Assembly: GCF_023195695.1 (NCBI RefSeq)
Contig: NZ_JALPQG010000007.1
Location: 62,001-126,000, forward strand
Length of the DNA: 64,000 bases
Source: Aliiroseovarius sp. S1339
GTDB lineage: Bacteria > Pseudomonadota > Alphaproteobacteria > Rhodobacterales > Rhodobacteraceae
Reading direction: 5' to 3'
The notes below the pieces were generated by a model. The model did not search any database. It was not told the DNA's origin and saw nothing but the letters and a program-made list of their open reading frames with translations. A program made the translations under genes and the position numbers. Below, piece after piece: positions 10,411-14,888 of this stretch. Positions within the stretch are counted from its first letter, which is position 1. The number at the start of each line of letters is the position of its first letter.

Positions 10411-11484
10411 ATGGACGACCTTAGAACAAAATACCTTGATGCAATCGGCGGTGCTGCGGACGAAGCGACACTGGAAGATATCCGCGTGCAAGCCGTCGGC
10501 AAGAAGGGCGAAGTGGCCTTGAAAATGCGCGAGCTGGGCAAGATGACGCCGGAAGAACGCCAAGTCGCTGGCCCCAAGCTGAACGCACTGAAGGACGAGA
10601 TCAACTCGGCCATCGCCGCCAAGAAATCCGGGCTGGCTGATGCCGCGCTGGACGAGCGTTTGCGCACCGAATGGCTGGACGTGACCCTGCCGGGCCGCCC
10701 GCAACGCCAAGGCACCATCCACCCGATTTCGCAGGTCACGGAGGAGATCAGCGCGATCTTTGGCGACATGGGTTTCGCGGTTGCCGAAGGTCCGCAGATC
10801 GAAAGCGACTGGTATAACTTCGACGCCCTGAACATCCCGGCGGACCACCCCACCCGGACCGAGATGGACACCTTCTATATGACCATGCCGGACGGCGACG
10901 AGCGTCCGCCCCACGTGCTGCGCACCCATACCAGCCCCGTGCAAATCCGCGCGATGATGGCGCAGGGTGCTCCGATCCGCGTGATCGCGCCGGGCCGTGT
11001 TTACCGCGCCGATTACGACCAGACCCACACCCCGATGTTCCATCAGGTCGAGGGGCTGGCGATCGACAAAGATATCTCGATGGCGAACCTGAAATGGACG
11101 CTGGAAGAATTCTGCCGCGCGTTCTTTGAAATCGACGGGATCGAACTGCGCTTCCGCGCCTCGCACTTCCCCTTCACCGAACCGTCGGCCGAAGTCGACA
11201 TTCGCTGCTCGTGGGAAGGCGGCACCCTGAAATTGGGCGAGGGCGACGACTGGATGGAAATCTTGGGCAGCGGCATGGTGCATCCGAAAGTGCTGCAATC
11301 GGCGGGCGTGGACCCGGACGAATGGCAAGGCTTCGCCTTCGGCCTCGGCATCGACCGTCTGGCCATGCTGAAATACGGCATCCCCGACCTGCGCGCGTTC
11401 TTTGACAGCGACCTGCGCTGGTTGCGACATTACGGGTTCAGCTCGCTGGATGTGCCGACGATGCGTGGGGGGTTGAGTAGGTGA
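10411..11484 (+). CDS. pheS: Phenylalanine-tRNA ligase alpha subunit
   Basis: This 357-residue class II synthetase subunit charges tRNA-Phe as an (alpha-beta)2 enzyme. An N-terminal coiled-coil arm covers roughly residues 1-90. The catalytic domain has [41 protein letters not shown] and the motif 3 region [18 protein letters not shown]. The ATG at 10411 follows AAAGGGG; an in-frame GTG at 10390 would add seven residues. The stop overlaps the next gene by GTGA. Unusually, pheT does not follow directly: two accessory genes and a pheT fragment intervene. Confidence 0.97.
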
Positions 11485-11957
11485 GTGCCTCAGCCCTAAT
11501 TGCTGCGACTATCGGCTCTGGAACTGCGTTGTTCATCGCTTTTGTCGCCTATCCAATCCAAAAAAGAAGAGACAGACGGCTATTAGTTGAAACTGAGCGC
11601 AGGCATGCATATCGCCGCTTTGTTACTGAAGCGGTTGGCTATTCTAGGATCAGAACTGATTCTGGGTCAGAACTGGAAGAAACCATTCGTGGACTAGCCA
11701 GCGCAGCTCATGAGCTGGCACTTTATGCTCCGCCGGAAGTCATGCGTCTGGCAAAAAATTACATATACTCCGAAACGGTCCTTCAGGCAAAAAAATCCGC
11801 GTTGCCGAAGGAAGAGTGGAAGAATCTCGGACACAATCCTCATGAGGTTCAAATGTTCACTGCCATGCGCAAAGACCTTTTTGGAGACAAAGACCTGTCA
11901 AATGATGAGATCCAGGCGTTTTTGCGGCTTGAAATCTTGGAAGAGGACAAGACATGA
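11481..11957 (+). CDS. Hypothetical N-terminally membrane-anchored protein inserted in the pheST operon
   Basis: The 158-residue protein starts with GTG overlapping the pheS stop (GTGA, 11481-11484). One hydrophobic helix ([20 protein letters not shown]) is followed by a basic stretch ([11 protein letters not shown]) and a soluble helical tail with [20 protein letters not shown]. This layout is seen in many uncharacterised small anchored proteins, and no family is assigned. Codon and base use are clearly more A+T-rich than pheS and pheT, pointing to transfer. Its last codons (EDKT) and stop lie on a block, gagga-aagacATGAaattc, that recurs at the true pheT start. Confidence 0.65.
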
Positions 11958-12052
11958 AATTCTCTGTCTCCCGACTGACCAACCACCTCGACTCCACAGC
12001 ATCCGTGGGTGAATCCACCGATACCTGCACCAAACCGGAGCTTTCCCAATGA
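11954..12052 (+). pseudogene. Degenerate duplicate of the pheT 5' end (32 codons)
   Basis: A 32-codon frame, ATG at 11954 to TGA at 12052, encodes a diverged copy of the PheT N-terminus. Aligned by hand with the real pheT start at 12492, 16 of the first 26 residues and about 58 of 78 bases match; shared elements include MKF, HLD, TASV and C-T at positions 25-26. The similarity also extends upstream over gaggaYaagac. The frame overlaps the preceding gene by ATGA (11954-11957) and the following ASCH gene by ATGA (12049-12052). It is probably a remnant of gene insertion at pheT; any function of the peptide is unknown. Confidence 0.85.
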
Positions 12053-12495
12053 GCGACGACGACATCGAAGACCTGCAAGTCACCTATCCCGGCGCCGGAA
12101 CCTTCAAGTTTGGCGACAGTGCCAAGCTGTCGGCCAAGCTGATCAAGCGGGTGCGGGCGGGGCAGAAGCATGCGACCTCTGGCGCTCTACGAGACTTCGC
12201 GGACGACCCGGATGCGATGCCCAAGGTCGGTCGCTGCGATATCGCGGCAAACTGGGACGGCACGCCTGCGCTGGTGATCCGCACCAAGTCGGTCGAACAA
12301 GTCCGGTTTTGCGATGTCACCGAGGAATTGGCCCATGCCGAGGGCGAAACGCTGGAAGGGTGGCAACGGGGCCATAAGGCCTATTTTGAACGCAACGGCG
12401 GGTTTGATCCCGAGATGATGTTGCTGTTCGAACATTTCGAAGTGGTTGAAGATTTGGCAAGCCGACCGGCGATGCAGACAGAGGATAAGACATGA
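12049..12495 (+). CDS. ASCH domain protein inserted in the pheST operon
   Basis: The protein has 148 residues. SAKLSAKLIKRVRAGQKHAT resembles the ASCH-domain basic helix/loop, and the C-terminal EELAHAEGETLEGWQRGHKA matches the ASCH 'AEGE...W' region. ASCH folds are related to PUA and are thought to bind RNA or modified nucleosides; some (YqfB type) act as amidohydrolases on N4-acetylcytidine. The start overlaps the pheT-fragment stop and its stop overlaps pheT (ATGA 12492-12495), so it is likely translationally coupled. Base composition is close to the host's, unlike the preceding gene. The substrate is unknown. Confidence 0.8.
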   Translation: MSDDDIEDLQVTYPGAGTFKFGDSAKLSAKLIKRVRAGQKHATSGALRDFADDPDAMPKVGRCDIAANWDGTPALVIRTKSVEQVRFCDVTEELAHAEGETLEGWQRGHKAYFERNGGFDPEMMLLFEHFEVVEDLASRPAMQTEDKT

Positions 12496-14888
12496 AATTC
12501 ACACTCTCCTGGCTGAAAGATCACCTCGACACCACAGCCTCGGTCGATGAAATCGCGGACGCCTGCACCGATCTGGGGCTGGAGGTTGAGGGTATCTATA
12601 ACCCCTTGGACCGTCTGGGCGCGTTCACGCTCGCCAAGGTCAAATCGGCTGAAAAACATCCCGACGCGGACCGTCTGAAAGTCTGCACCGTGGAAACCAA
12701 CGAAGGCGATGTACAAATCGTTTGCGGCGCACCCAATGCGCGCGAGGGGATCACCGTGGTCCTCGCCAAACCCGGCGATTATGTGCCCGGCATCGACGTG
12801 ACGCTCTCGGTCGGCAAAATCCGTGGTGTCGAAAGTCACGGTATGATGGCGTCTGAGCGCGAGTTGGAGCTGTCCGACGAGCATGATGGTATTATCGAGC
12901 TTCCCTCGGGCGAGGTGGGCGAGAAATTCGTCGACTGGCTCGCCGCCAATGACCCCGCGCTGGTCGATCCGGTGATCGAGATTGCGATCACGCCGAACCG
13001 CCCCGACGCGCTGGGCGTGCGCGGCGTTGCGCGTGACTTGGCGGCGCGGGGGCTGGGCACATTGAAGCCTCTGAAAGAGCATAAGGTCAAAGGCAACGGC
13101 GCCAGCCCGATCAATGTGACCATCGACGCCGACACCAAAGACGCAAACCCGCTGTTCATGGGCCGTCTGATCAAGGGCGTGAAGAACGGGCCGTCGCCGG
13201 CGTGGTTGCAAGCGCGTCTGCGCGCGATTGGGCTGCGCCCGATCTCGGCCCTTGTCGATATCACCAACTTCTTCACCTACGACATGAACCGCCCGCTGCA
13301 CGTGTTTGACGCCGACAAGGTCAAAGGCGACCTGCGCGTGCATCGCGCCAAGGGGGGCGAGACGCTGATGGGGCTGGACGAGAAGGAATATACCTTCGCG
13401 CCCGGCATGGTCATCATTTCGGATAATGAAGGTGTGGAGTCCATCGGCGGCATCATGGGCGGTCTGCCCACCGGTGCGACCTTTGACACCACCAACGTAT
13501 TTCTAGAGGCCGCGTTCTGGGACACGAAACAAATTGCCCGCACCGGGCGTGCTCTGAAGATCAATTCCGATGCGCGCTATCGCAACGAACGCGGTATCGA
13601 TCCGGCCTATAATGCGCAGGCGATCGAGGCCGCGACCCAGATGATCCTTGATCTTTGCGGCGGTGAGCCGTCGGACGTGGTGACTGCTGGCGAAGTGCCG
13701 GATACAAGCCGTGCTTACAAGCTGGACACTGACCGGGTGCAATCGCTGGTCGGCATGGACATTCCGGCGGATGAACAGCGCAAGACGCTGACCGCGCTGG
13801 GTTTCACCATCAAGGACGGCATGGCCCATGTGCCAAGCTGGCGCCCCGACGTGCAAGGCTCGGCCGATCTGGTCGAGGAGGTCGCGCGGGTGGCGAGCCT
13901 GACCAAGTTGGTCGGCAAGCCGCTGCCGCGTGCCCATGTGGGCGTGCCCAAGGCGATCCTGACGCCTTTGCAGAAACGCGAAGGCATGGCGCGCCGCACC
14001 GTGGCCGCGCTGGGCTACAACGAATGTGTGACCTACAGCTTCATTGATGAGGGCAGTGCCAAGCGGTTTGGCGGTGGGGCAGATGTGACGCAGTTGCAAA
14101 ACCCGATCTCGTCCGAGATGAGCCATATGCGCCCGTCTTTGCTGCCCGGTCTGCTGCAAGCCGCCGCCCGCAACCAGGCGCGCGGTTTCATGGATCTGGC
14201 GCTGTTCGAGGTTGGTCCTGTGTTCAGCGGCGGTGAGCCGGAAGAATATGAACAGATGGTCACCGGCATCCTCGTCGGCCATACCGGCCCGCGCGACCGG
14301 TTTGGCGCGCGCCGTCCCGTCGATACCTATGACGCCAAGGCGGATGTAGAAGAGGTGCTGAACGCCATCGGCGCCCCTGCCAAGCTGACCTATGTGCGCG
14401 ACATGAACGCGTGGTGGCACCCCGGACGCTCGGCCAAGCTAGGGCTGGGGCCGAAGAACATCCTTGGCGCGTTTGGCGAGCTACACCCGAAAGCGATTGC
14501 CGAGATGGACGTGAAAGGCCCCGTTGTGGCCTTCGCTGTGCATCTGGCGAAGGTGCCGTTCCCGAAAGCCAAAGGCACAGGGCGCGGCGCGCTGGGGGCC
14601 AGTGATTTGCAACCCGTCGAACGCGACTTCGCCTTCGTGGTGGATGCCGACGTGGAGGCGATCAACTTGGTGAACGCCGCCGCCGGGGCCGACAAGGCGC
14701 TGATCGTCGACGTGAATGTCTTTGACGAATTCATCGGCGGATCGCTTGGCGAGGGCAAGAAATCCCTCGCCATCACCGTGCGCCTGCAACCGCGTGACGC
14801 GACCCTGACCGACAAGGACATCGAAGCGGTCAGCGCCAAGATCGTTGAGAAGGTGGGCAAGGCCACTGGCGGCACATTGCGCGGCTGA
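12492..14888 (+). CDS. pheT: Phenylalanine-tRNA ligase beta subunit
   Basis: This full-length 798-residue beta subunit has an N-terminal arm and tRNA-binding (EMAP-like) domain with AKVKSAEKHPDADRLKVC around residues 50-70. The B3/B4 editing region follows (IEIAITPNRPDALGVRGVAR; RLIKGVKNGPSPAWLQARLR), then the B5 domain, the catalytic-like domain (NPISSEMSHMRPSLLPGLL) and the C-terminal FDX-ACB anticodon-binding domain (PVERDFAFVVD to the end). It completes the PheS2PheT2 enzyme and removes misacylated Tyr. The ATG overlaps the ASCH gene stop. A partial, diverged copy of its start lies 538 bp upstream. Confidence 0.97.
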   Translation: MKFTLSWLKDHLDTTASVDEIADACTDLGLEVEGIYNPLDRLGAFTLAKVKSAEKHPDADRLKVCTVETNEGDVQIVCGAPNAREGITVVLAKPGDYVPGIDVTLSVGKIRGVESHGMMASERELELSDEHDGIIELPSGEVGEKFVDWLAANDPALVDPVIEIAITPNRPDALGVRGVARDLAARGLGTLKPLKEHKVKGNGASPINVTIDADTKDANPLFMGRLIKGVKNGPSPAWLQARLRAIGLRPISALVDITNFFTYDMNRPLHVFDADKVKGDLRVHRAKGGETLMGLDEKEYTFAPGMVIISDNEGVESIGGIMGGLPTGATFDTTNVFLEAAFWDTKQIARTGRALKINSDARYRNERGIDPAYNAQAIEAATQMILDLCGGEPSDVVTAGEVPDTSRAYKLDTDRVQSLVGMDIPADEQRKTLTALGFTIKDGMAHVPSWRPDVQGSADLVEEVARVASLTKLVGKPLPRAHVGVPKAILTPLQKREGMARRTVAALGYNECVTYSFIDEGSAKRFGGGADVTQLQNPISSEMSHMRPSLLPGLLQAAARNQARGFMDLALFEVGPVFSGGEPEEYEQMVTGILVGHTGPRDRFGARRPVDTYDAKADVEEVLNAIGAPAKLTYVRDMNAWWHPGRSAKLGLGPKNILGAFGELHPKAIAEMDVKGPVVAFAVHLAKVPFPKAKGTGRGALGASDLQPVERDFAFVVDADVEAINLVNAAAGADKALIVDVNVFDEFIGGSLGEGKKSLAITVRLQPRDATLTDKDIEAVSAKIVEKVGKATGGTLRG

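What the first reader, a model, noticed from the sequence alone, without database searches (positions are those of the whole stretch)
11943..12570. A degenerate second copy of the pheT start lies upstream of the real pheT
Seen directly: the 32-codon frame at 11954-12052 matches the first 26 codons of pheT (12492 on) at 16 of 26 residues and about 58 of 78 bases, and the similarity includes the bases before the ATG (gaggaYaagac). Both neighbouring accessory genes therefore end in the same EDKT-stop. The simplest reading is that DNA carrying an accessory gene plus a divergent donor pheT start was inserted at the host pheT start, leaving the old start as a fragment. It would record how genes enter an essential operon without breaking it.
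Basis: partly seen in the sequence, partly recalled or inferred. Interest (0 to 1): 0.7.

Follow-up and report, generated by a model that had tools for sequence, protein, structure and literature searches.

The report
Old pheT start in a cargo slot
In this marine bacterium a decayed copy of the start of an essential gene (pheT) lies upstream of the working one, apparently left over from accessory genes being slotted in between pheS and pheT, a place where related bacteria carry many different small genes.

Summary
Bases 11942-12042 match the pheT start (12480-12580) at 75%, far above shuffled controls, and the 32-codon frame is open. By its nearest named relatives the genus is Aliiroseovarius (Rhodobacterales). 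The fragment is not a one-off recent scar: 3 of 20 genus genomes have it, a fourth keeps an 11-codon remnant, and a more distant Aliiroseovarius assembly has a longer one, always just upstream of the same ASCH-gene lineage but below different cargo genes. In G012 the fragment is 78/78 identical to the pheT start of a sister species without ASCH, and 70/78 to its own pheT, so newer cargo probably arrived with a pheT start and recombined inside the fragment. The wider finding is stronger: in sampled Rhodobacteraceae the pheS-pheT junction is an open cargo slot (median gap 788 bp in 69 genomes, against -1 bp in 19 genomes of other alphaproteobacterial families). Four cargo proteins searched in whole genomes gave 30 hits (one the window itself), 26 of them beside pheS or pheT. 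A foreign-genus origin of the fragment is not supported; the origin of the ASCH gene is unresolved, and constraint on the fragment is not shown.

The parts
10411..11484 (+). pheS (phenylalanyl-tRNA synthetase alpha); left flank of the slot
   Evidence: Pfam PF01409 and PF02912; stop overlaps the next start by GTGA
11481..11957 (+). cargo gene x158: probably membrane-anchored helical protein, no known domain, 48.0% GC against 62.0% in pheS
   Evidence: no Pfam or NCBIfam hit; GC; relatives in Maritimibacter, Yoonia and G096 lie in the pheS-pheT slot (the first two were fetched through their ASCH gene, so their place is not an independent test)
11942..12042 (+). stretch homologous to the pheT start (copy 1), including 12 bases before the ATG
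   Evidence: 75% over 101 nt
11954..12052 (+). pheT-prime: 32-codon open relic of a pheT start; ATG overlaps the x158 stop, TGA overlaps the ASCH start
12037..12040 (+). GGAG, Shine-Dalgarno-like, 8 bases before the ASCH ATG, supplied by the fragment tail; also in G012, G013 and G020
   Evidence: function inferred
12049..12495 (+). ASCH-domain gene (lineage ASCH1), stop overlaps pheT ATG
   Evidence: PF04266 E 2.7e-19; trees
12480..12580 (+). homologous copy 2: the intact pheT start
12492..14888 (+). pheT (phenylalanyl-tRNA synthetase beta), intact; right flank of the slot
   Evidence: PF03483, PF17759, PF03147, PF01588, PF03484

Best explanation
The fragment is the left-over start of an earlier pheT in an operon that works as a cargo slot. 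(1) In an ancestor, or in a donor related to Aliiroseovarius BWSM_38, DNA carrying an ASCH gene plus a whole pheT start joined the operon. It recombined homologously inside pheT on its right and by a chance join near pheT codon 44 on its left, so the old start stayed behind as pheT-prime (inferred; the pattern of homology-facilitated illegitimate recombination). (2) Since then different small genes have replaced one another between pheS and pheT-prime. In G012 the incoming gene seems to have brought the pheT start of an ASCH-less operon with it, with the right crossover inside pheT-prime after codon 26 (strongly suggested by sequence); in G013 a similar crossover after codon 28 is likely but less clear. 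In the window species the fragment was not refreshed and has decayed. (3) pheT-prime stays in the reading chain: the upstream stop and the ASCH start both overlap it by four bases in the window, and its tail gives the GGAG before ASCH, so it probably acts as a short translated leader for ASCH rather than as a protein (inferred). (4) The slot is family-wide: in most sampled Rhodobacteraceae pheS and pheT are pushed apart, usually with candidate genes between them, and the four cargo families searched occur almost only there, which fits exchange through homologous recombination in the flanking essential genes, possibly by gene transfer agents (inferred).
For: Homology. Sharing: fragments in G012 and G013, an 11-codon remnant in G020, 44 codons in BWSM_38; one BLAST piece runs through fragment and ASCH between BWSM_38 and G012. 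Overwriting: the G012 fragment is 78/78 to the G015 pheT start, 70/78 to its own, best of 142 starts (a few of the 142 are the same or near-same genome); 0 of 125 genus pairs with rpoB divergence of 9% or more reach 78 (maximum 76; six closer pairs do reach 78); identity to G015 ends at the codon 26/27 border, where the old tail AAACCGGAGCTT begins. Slot: median gap 788 bp in 69 family genomes, -1 bp in 19 genomes of other families, 20 bp for atpA-atpG and 157 bp for ilvI-ilvH. Slot residence: x158 2 of 2 hits (one is the window itself), G012 cargo 2 of 2, G003 cargo 4 of 4, DUF2513 cargo 18 of 22, beside pheS or pheT. A second, independent pheT relic in G110. GTA marker PF13547 in 20 of 21 genus genomes. 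The ASCH DNA tree rejects the clade A carriers as one clade (AU p 0.0002).
Against: No operon with the old single start at that point was found, so the order of events is inferred. Shared derived states between the G000 and BWSM_38 fragments are only three (chance 0.02-0.07). The G013 fragment reaches only 72/78 with its best match. An open frame is expected by chance with probability 0.57 after that many changes, so constraint on the leader is not shown. Clumping of differences is higher in pheS (2.35) but lower in pheT (1.46) than in rpoB (1.73), so raised recombination in both flanks is not shown. The protein ASCH tree does not reject one origin in the genus. No other of the 20 genus spacers holds the G012 cargo. 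The control gene pairs have a few wide gaps too.
Confidence: 0.66

Rival explanations
1. One recent insertion in this species brought an accessory gene with a foreign donor pheT start and left the host start as the fragment.
For: Fragment, inserted gene and intact start are all there; x158 is GC-poor (48.0%); the G012 intact start is nearest to G131 and BWSM_38.
Against: Fragment (or its remnant) and ASCH are shared by five genomes with different upstream genes; the fragment is nearest to same-genus starts.
Confidence: 0.1
2. Tandem duplication of the host's own pheT start region, without any donor, with ASCH entering or lying between the copies, followed by decay.
For: In BWSM_38 the fragment is nearest to its own pheT start (70/78).
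Against: ASCH is present once in the operon; the G012 and G013 fragments are nearer to other species' pheT starts than to their own, and the G000 fragment slightly so (61 against 58 of 78).
Confidence: 0.15
3. The fragment is a selected leader peptide or regulatory element of the operon.
For: The frame is open in all five genomes and ends at or next to the ASCH start; GGAG is kept in four.
Against: Absent from 16 of 20 genus genomes, or from 17 if the G020 remnant is not counted; no Rfam match; residues not clearly constrained; open frame expected by chance with P 0.57.
Confidence: 0.1
4. Chance similarity or convergence on a ribosome-binding site.
For: GAGGA is common before starts in this operon.
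Against: Score 75 against a shuffle maximum of 33; similarity runs over 101 bases.
Confidence: 0.01

Closest known systems
Homology-facilitated illegitimate recombination, as proposed for T6SS effector replacement in Vibrio cholerae (PMC5361080, passages read)
   Same: One end of the incoming DNA recombines by homology, the other joins by chance, and a displaced piece of the old arrangement stays behind; other swaps happen by ordinary homologous recombination.
   Different: Here the piece is the start of an essential housekeeping gene inside its operon, and it seems to have become the crossover site for later swaps.
Hotspots of horizontal transfer exchanged through flanking core genes (PMC5635113, passages read)
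   Same: Turnover of unrelated genes between two conserved genes, with no integrase or transposase family among the 49 cargo ORFs scanned.
   Different: [quoted passage not shown] here the hotspot lies between two subunit genes of one essential enzyme, spans a family, and holds gene families that in my four searches were seen almost only there.
ASCH-domain proteins (PF04266)
   Same: The inserted gene scores 70.2 bits, E 2.7e-19.
   Different: Its place between pheS and pheT; biochemical activity not tested.

Membership tests
Homology-facilitated illegitimate recombination scar | Homology at one junction | tested here: inconclusive
   ASCH is followed by a complete pheT start continuous with host pheT, which fits, but the crossover point in pheT was not located
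Homology-facilitated illegitimate recombination scar | No homology at the other junction | tested here: inconclusive
   Old start is cut after about codon 30 (codon 44 in BWSM_38) and followed by ASCH; the pre-insertion site was not found
Transfer hotspot exchanged by flanking core genes | Many unrelated genes in one spot between the same core genes | tested here: met
   13 of 20 genus genomes carry 11 kinds of cargo beyond ASCH and the 45-55 aa peptide; 91 genus and family ORFs (some may be spurious frames) fall in 43 clusters
Transfer hotspot exchanged by flanking core genes | More homologous recombination in flanking core genes | tested here: inconclusive
   Clumping raised in pheS, not in pheT, against rpoB
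Integron or mobile-element insertion site | Integrase or transposase gene in the slot | tested here: not met
   No such family among 49 cargo ORFs scanned at E 0.001; two frames that look like transposases by eye, in G110 and G064, the second scanned without such a hit
Integron or mobile-element insertion site | attC sites or terminal repeats | tested here: inconclusive
   No terminal repeats stand out in the window spacer; attC not searched as such
Attenuator leader peptide of pheST type | Phe-rich short frame and terminator (features recalled) | tested here: not met
   One Phe in 32 codons, no terminator-like site, no Rfam hit
ASCH domain | Profile match over the curated cut-off | tested here: met
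   70.2 bits against 21.2
ASCH domain | RNA-related activity (recalled) | not testable with these tools
   Needs biochemistry

The most novel reading that the evidence does not exclude
The pheS-pheT junction of Rhodobacteraceae is a locus with many unrelated alternative 'alleles': a pool of small genes that lives almost only in this slot and passes between genera by recombination in the two flanking essential genes, probably in gene transfer agent particles. pheT-prime is a by-product that lets cargo be swapped without losing ASCH.
Probability: 0.4. Interest if true: 0.78.

Novelty: new variant of a known kind. Interest (0 to 1): 0.6.

Why it matters
It gives a series of states (old fragment, refreshed fragments, remnant) that suggests how genes enter an essential two-subunit operon without breaking it, although new genes are said to enter operons rarely (PMC5635113, passage). 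The slot-bound gene families make it testable whether non-homologous genes can behave like alleles at one locus, and why an essential tRNA synthetase operon would host them.

Tried and rejected
Foreign-genus origin of the fragment: rejected. ASCH1 as a proven import from another genus: not shown; protein AU test p 0.50, small DNA tree p 0.03. Constraint on the 32-codon frame: not shown. Raised recombination in both flanks: not shown. Cargo as known phage defence: in the PADLOC scan of 49 ORFs only two PycTM models matched, one member each, E 1e-4 and 8e-4. x158 in phages, plasmids or viral contigs: no match. Structure of x158: mean pLDDT 59.1 with three sequences, all helical, too poor to search further. 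Rfam: nothing. One search searched loci before turning the minus-strand ones and was redone. The first rpoB tree used a wrong frame for two genomes and was redone. A first chance estimate for shared fragment states (0.21) counted empty positions as matches and was replaced.

Sampling limits: 80 of the 124 family genomes with pheT were fetched, taken mainly from those nearest in pheT sequence; 69 had the pheS end in reach. Of 24 class-level genomes, 20 were fetched and 19 had pheS in reach. The control pairs used the 30 best-scoring loci out of 61 genomes each; for ilvI-ilvH 26 of 30 were measured, and gaps run to the profile start, so they include a few codons. In one search, 68 cargo ORFs were picked by simple rules, not by a gene caller; 49 of them were scanned, and the 19 left out were mostly frames that looked spurious. 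In one search eight long-branch ASCH rows were dropped; one search used 17 rows; one search used 16 genomes with equal pheT length. The whole-genome cargo searches held only G000 from the genus itself.
Full report
OBSERVATION. The 32-codon frame at 11954-12052 and its match to the pheT start are real. At a fixed offset of 538 bases, 58 of 78 bases and 16 of 26 residues agree. The alignable stretch is 11942-12042 against 12480-12580 (75%), with a score of 75 for the fragment against a maximum of 33 in 1000 dinucleotide shuffles (found again by the repeat finder). The order is pheS (to 11484), cargo x158 (11481-11957), fragment pheT-prime (11954-12052), ASCH-domain gene (12049-12495), pheT (from 12492). 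Each overlaps the next by four bases (GTGA or ATGA).

WHERE IT OCCURS. The window is contig C17 of G000. The three nearest named ASCH loci (98, 96 and 90% identity) are titled Aliiroseovarius, from which I infer the genus. Of 21 genomes in the genus 20 gave a pheT start, and the pheS-pheT spacer was measured in these 20. A scan of 142 pheS-pheT loci for pheT-like stretches in the spacer found the fragment in G000, G012, G013 and the Aliiroseovarius MAG BWSM_38 (L075). It also found an unrelated case in G110 and one 31-nt match in G132 that was not followed up. G020 keeps 11 codons of the fragment, in frame, too short for that scan. In all five genomes the fragment or remnant directly precedes the same ASCH lineage, but the gene before it differs: x158 (G000), a 146-aa protein (G012), a 210-aa protein (G013), a DUF2513 protein (G020), and a 55-aa MPIW membrane peptide (BWSM_38). 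The scar is therefore older than the present cargo of the window species.

WHAT THE FRAGMENTS SAY. The G012 fragment is 78/78 identical to the pheT start of G015, a sister species with no ASCH gene in the slot, and 70/78 to its own pheT; it is the best of 142 starts. Among 125 genus pairs with rpoB divergence of 9% or more, none reaches 78 and the maximum is 76; six closer pairs do reach 78. G012 and G015 differ by 11.2% in rpoB. The identity stops at the border of codons 26 and 27, where an older tail (AAA CCG GAG CTT) shared with G000 and G020 begins. In G013 the fragment looks native to about codon 28 (72/78 to its best match, 66/78 to its own pheT), so its case is less clear. The G000 fragment is decayed throughout (61/78 to its best match, 58/78 to its own pheT) and shares three otherwise unseen states with BWSM_38 (codons 7, 19, 28; chance 0.02-0.07). 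The simplest account is one old fragment, refreshed at its 5' end in G012 and probably G013 when new cargo arrived together with an ASCH-less pheT start, with the right crossover inside pheT-prime. In G012 the intact pheT start, not the fragment, looks foreign: its nearest starts are G131 and BWSM_38 (73/78) and not its own genus.

ORIGIN. The fragment reaches codon 44 in BWSM_38 and about codon 30 elsewhere. I infer that an ASCH gene with a complete pheT start was added by recombination in pheT on the right and a chance join on the left. The genus holds two separate ASCH lineages: ASCH1 in the five genomes above and ASCH2 in eight others, each well supported (99/95). Holding the clade A carriers (G000, G012, G013, G020, G006, G009) together is rejected (AU p 0.0002), so ASCH has moved or been replaced. 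Whether ASCH1 came from outside the genus is open: the protein test gives p 0.50, the smaller DNA test p 0.03.

THE SLOT. The spacer is variable far beyond this case. In the genus it runs from 273 to 1166 bp (n 20), and 13 of 20 genomes carry 11 kinds of cargo other than ASCH and the 45-55 aa peptide. In 69 family genomes (of 80 fetched, of 124 with pheT) the gap runs from -4 to 2798 bp, median 788, with 59 of 69 at 180 bp or more. A simple frame caller finds at least one frame of 60 codons or more in 54 of the 60 spacers of 150 bp or more, but some of these frames are surely spurious. In 19 genomes from other alphaproteobacterial families the median is -1 bp and 1 of 19 is over 180. Two control pairs in the same family are tighter: atpA-atpG median 20 bp (2 of 30 over 180) and ilvI-ilvH median 157 bp, counted to the profile start (7 of 26 at 180 or more). 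The control pairs do have outliers, so other operons are opened at times. Cargo found by Pfam among 49 ORFs: YrhK 8, ASCH 6, class I amidotransferase 5, alpha/beta hydrolase 5, cupin 2, dimethylargininase-like 2, DUF2513 1 and others; others have no family. The spacer is GC-poorer than both flanks in all 23 operons listed.

SLOT-BOUND FAMILIES. Four cargo proteins were searched against whole genomes of the family, six frames. x158: 2 hits in 149 genomes, one of them the window itself, both in the slot. G012 cargo: 2 in 295, both between pheS and pheT. G003 cargo: 4 in 295, all beside pheS. DUF2513 cargo: 22 in 295, 18 with pheS or pheT within the 1.5 kb fetched on each side. Together this is 26 of 30, or 25 of 29 without the window. 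The four exceptions are L298, L300, L301 and L304. x158 has no match in the phage, plasmid or viral collections searched. Genes that occur in several genera but almost only at one place are most easily moved by recombination in the shared flanks; descent with much loss is the alternative and was not tested. A gene transfer agent marker (PF13547) is present in 20 of 21 genus genomes including G000, which makes that route possible but does not show it.

ROLE OF THE FRAGMENT. Its tail supplies GGAG eight bases before the ASCH start in G000, G012, G013 and G020, and BWSM_38 has GGGAG there. The frame is open in all five. An open frame is expected with probability 0.57 by chance for the G000 fragment and residues are not clearly conserved, so I take it as a passive, perhaps translated leader of ASCH, not a functional peptide. 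There is no Rfam match and no terminator-like site.

SECOND CASE. In G110 (L157) pheT codons 9-64 lie about 835 bp upstream of an intact pheT, just after a frame that looks like an IS transposase and before a YrhK-like gene (both names by eye, not scanned). pheS was not within reach there. Two lineages therefore hold pheT-start relics, which suggests that joining by a pheT end is a recurrent way into the slot.

LITERATURE. Nine searches of the held library were made. The six that combined this locus, clade or operon insertion listed no paper whose title or abstract start describes such a slot; the papers listed were not opened. PMC5361080 and PMC5635113 were read in passages only; all others were seen in listings only.

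VERDICT. The sequence observation is right. The scar reading is right in kind, but older, shared and more dynamic than proposed, and the fragment is not from another genus. The family-wide cargo slot between two essential subunit genes is the more interesting result.

Noticed in passing
L157 (G110), about 900-1800 bp upstream of pheT: A frame that looks like an IS transposase (310 aa, judged by eye) sits directly before an independent pheT relic (codons 9-64).
   Followed up: partly
L132 (G064), 1768-2352, pheS-pheT spacer: A frame resembling a REP-associated tyrosine transposase, judged by eye; the Pfam scan reported no transposase family.
   Followed up: partly
L143, L191, L189 (G067, G090, G120): Membrane cargo proteins that form one cluster and resemble PycTM defence effectors by eye; the PADLOC scan of 49 ORFs gave only two weak PycTM model hits and does not say for which member.
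   Followed up: partly
control loci L198-L257: A few genomes have about 0.5-1.3 kb between atpA and atpG (2 of 30) or ilvI and ilvH (5 of 26), so other core operons are sometimes opened too.
   Followed up: no
L039 and L041 (G015, G004): Two species from different rpoB clades share the same SMI1/KNR4 (SUKH) cargo at 92% DNA identity; it and the first 150 bases of pheT are closer than pheS and most of pheT, suggesting exchange.
   Followed up: partly
L146 (G132), about 2.3 kb upstream of pheT: A 31-nt match to its own pheT start region (E 5e-4), possibly another relic or chance.
   Followed up: no
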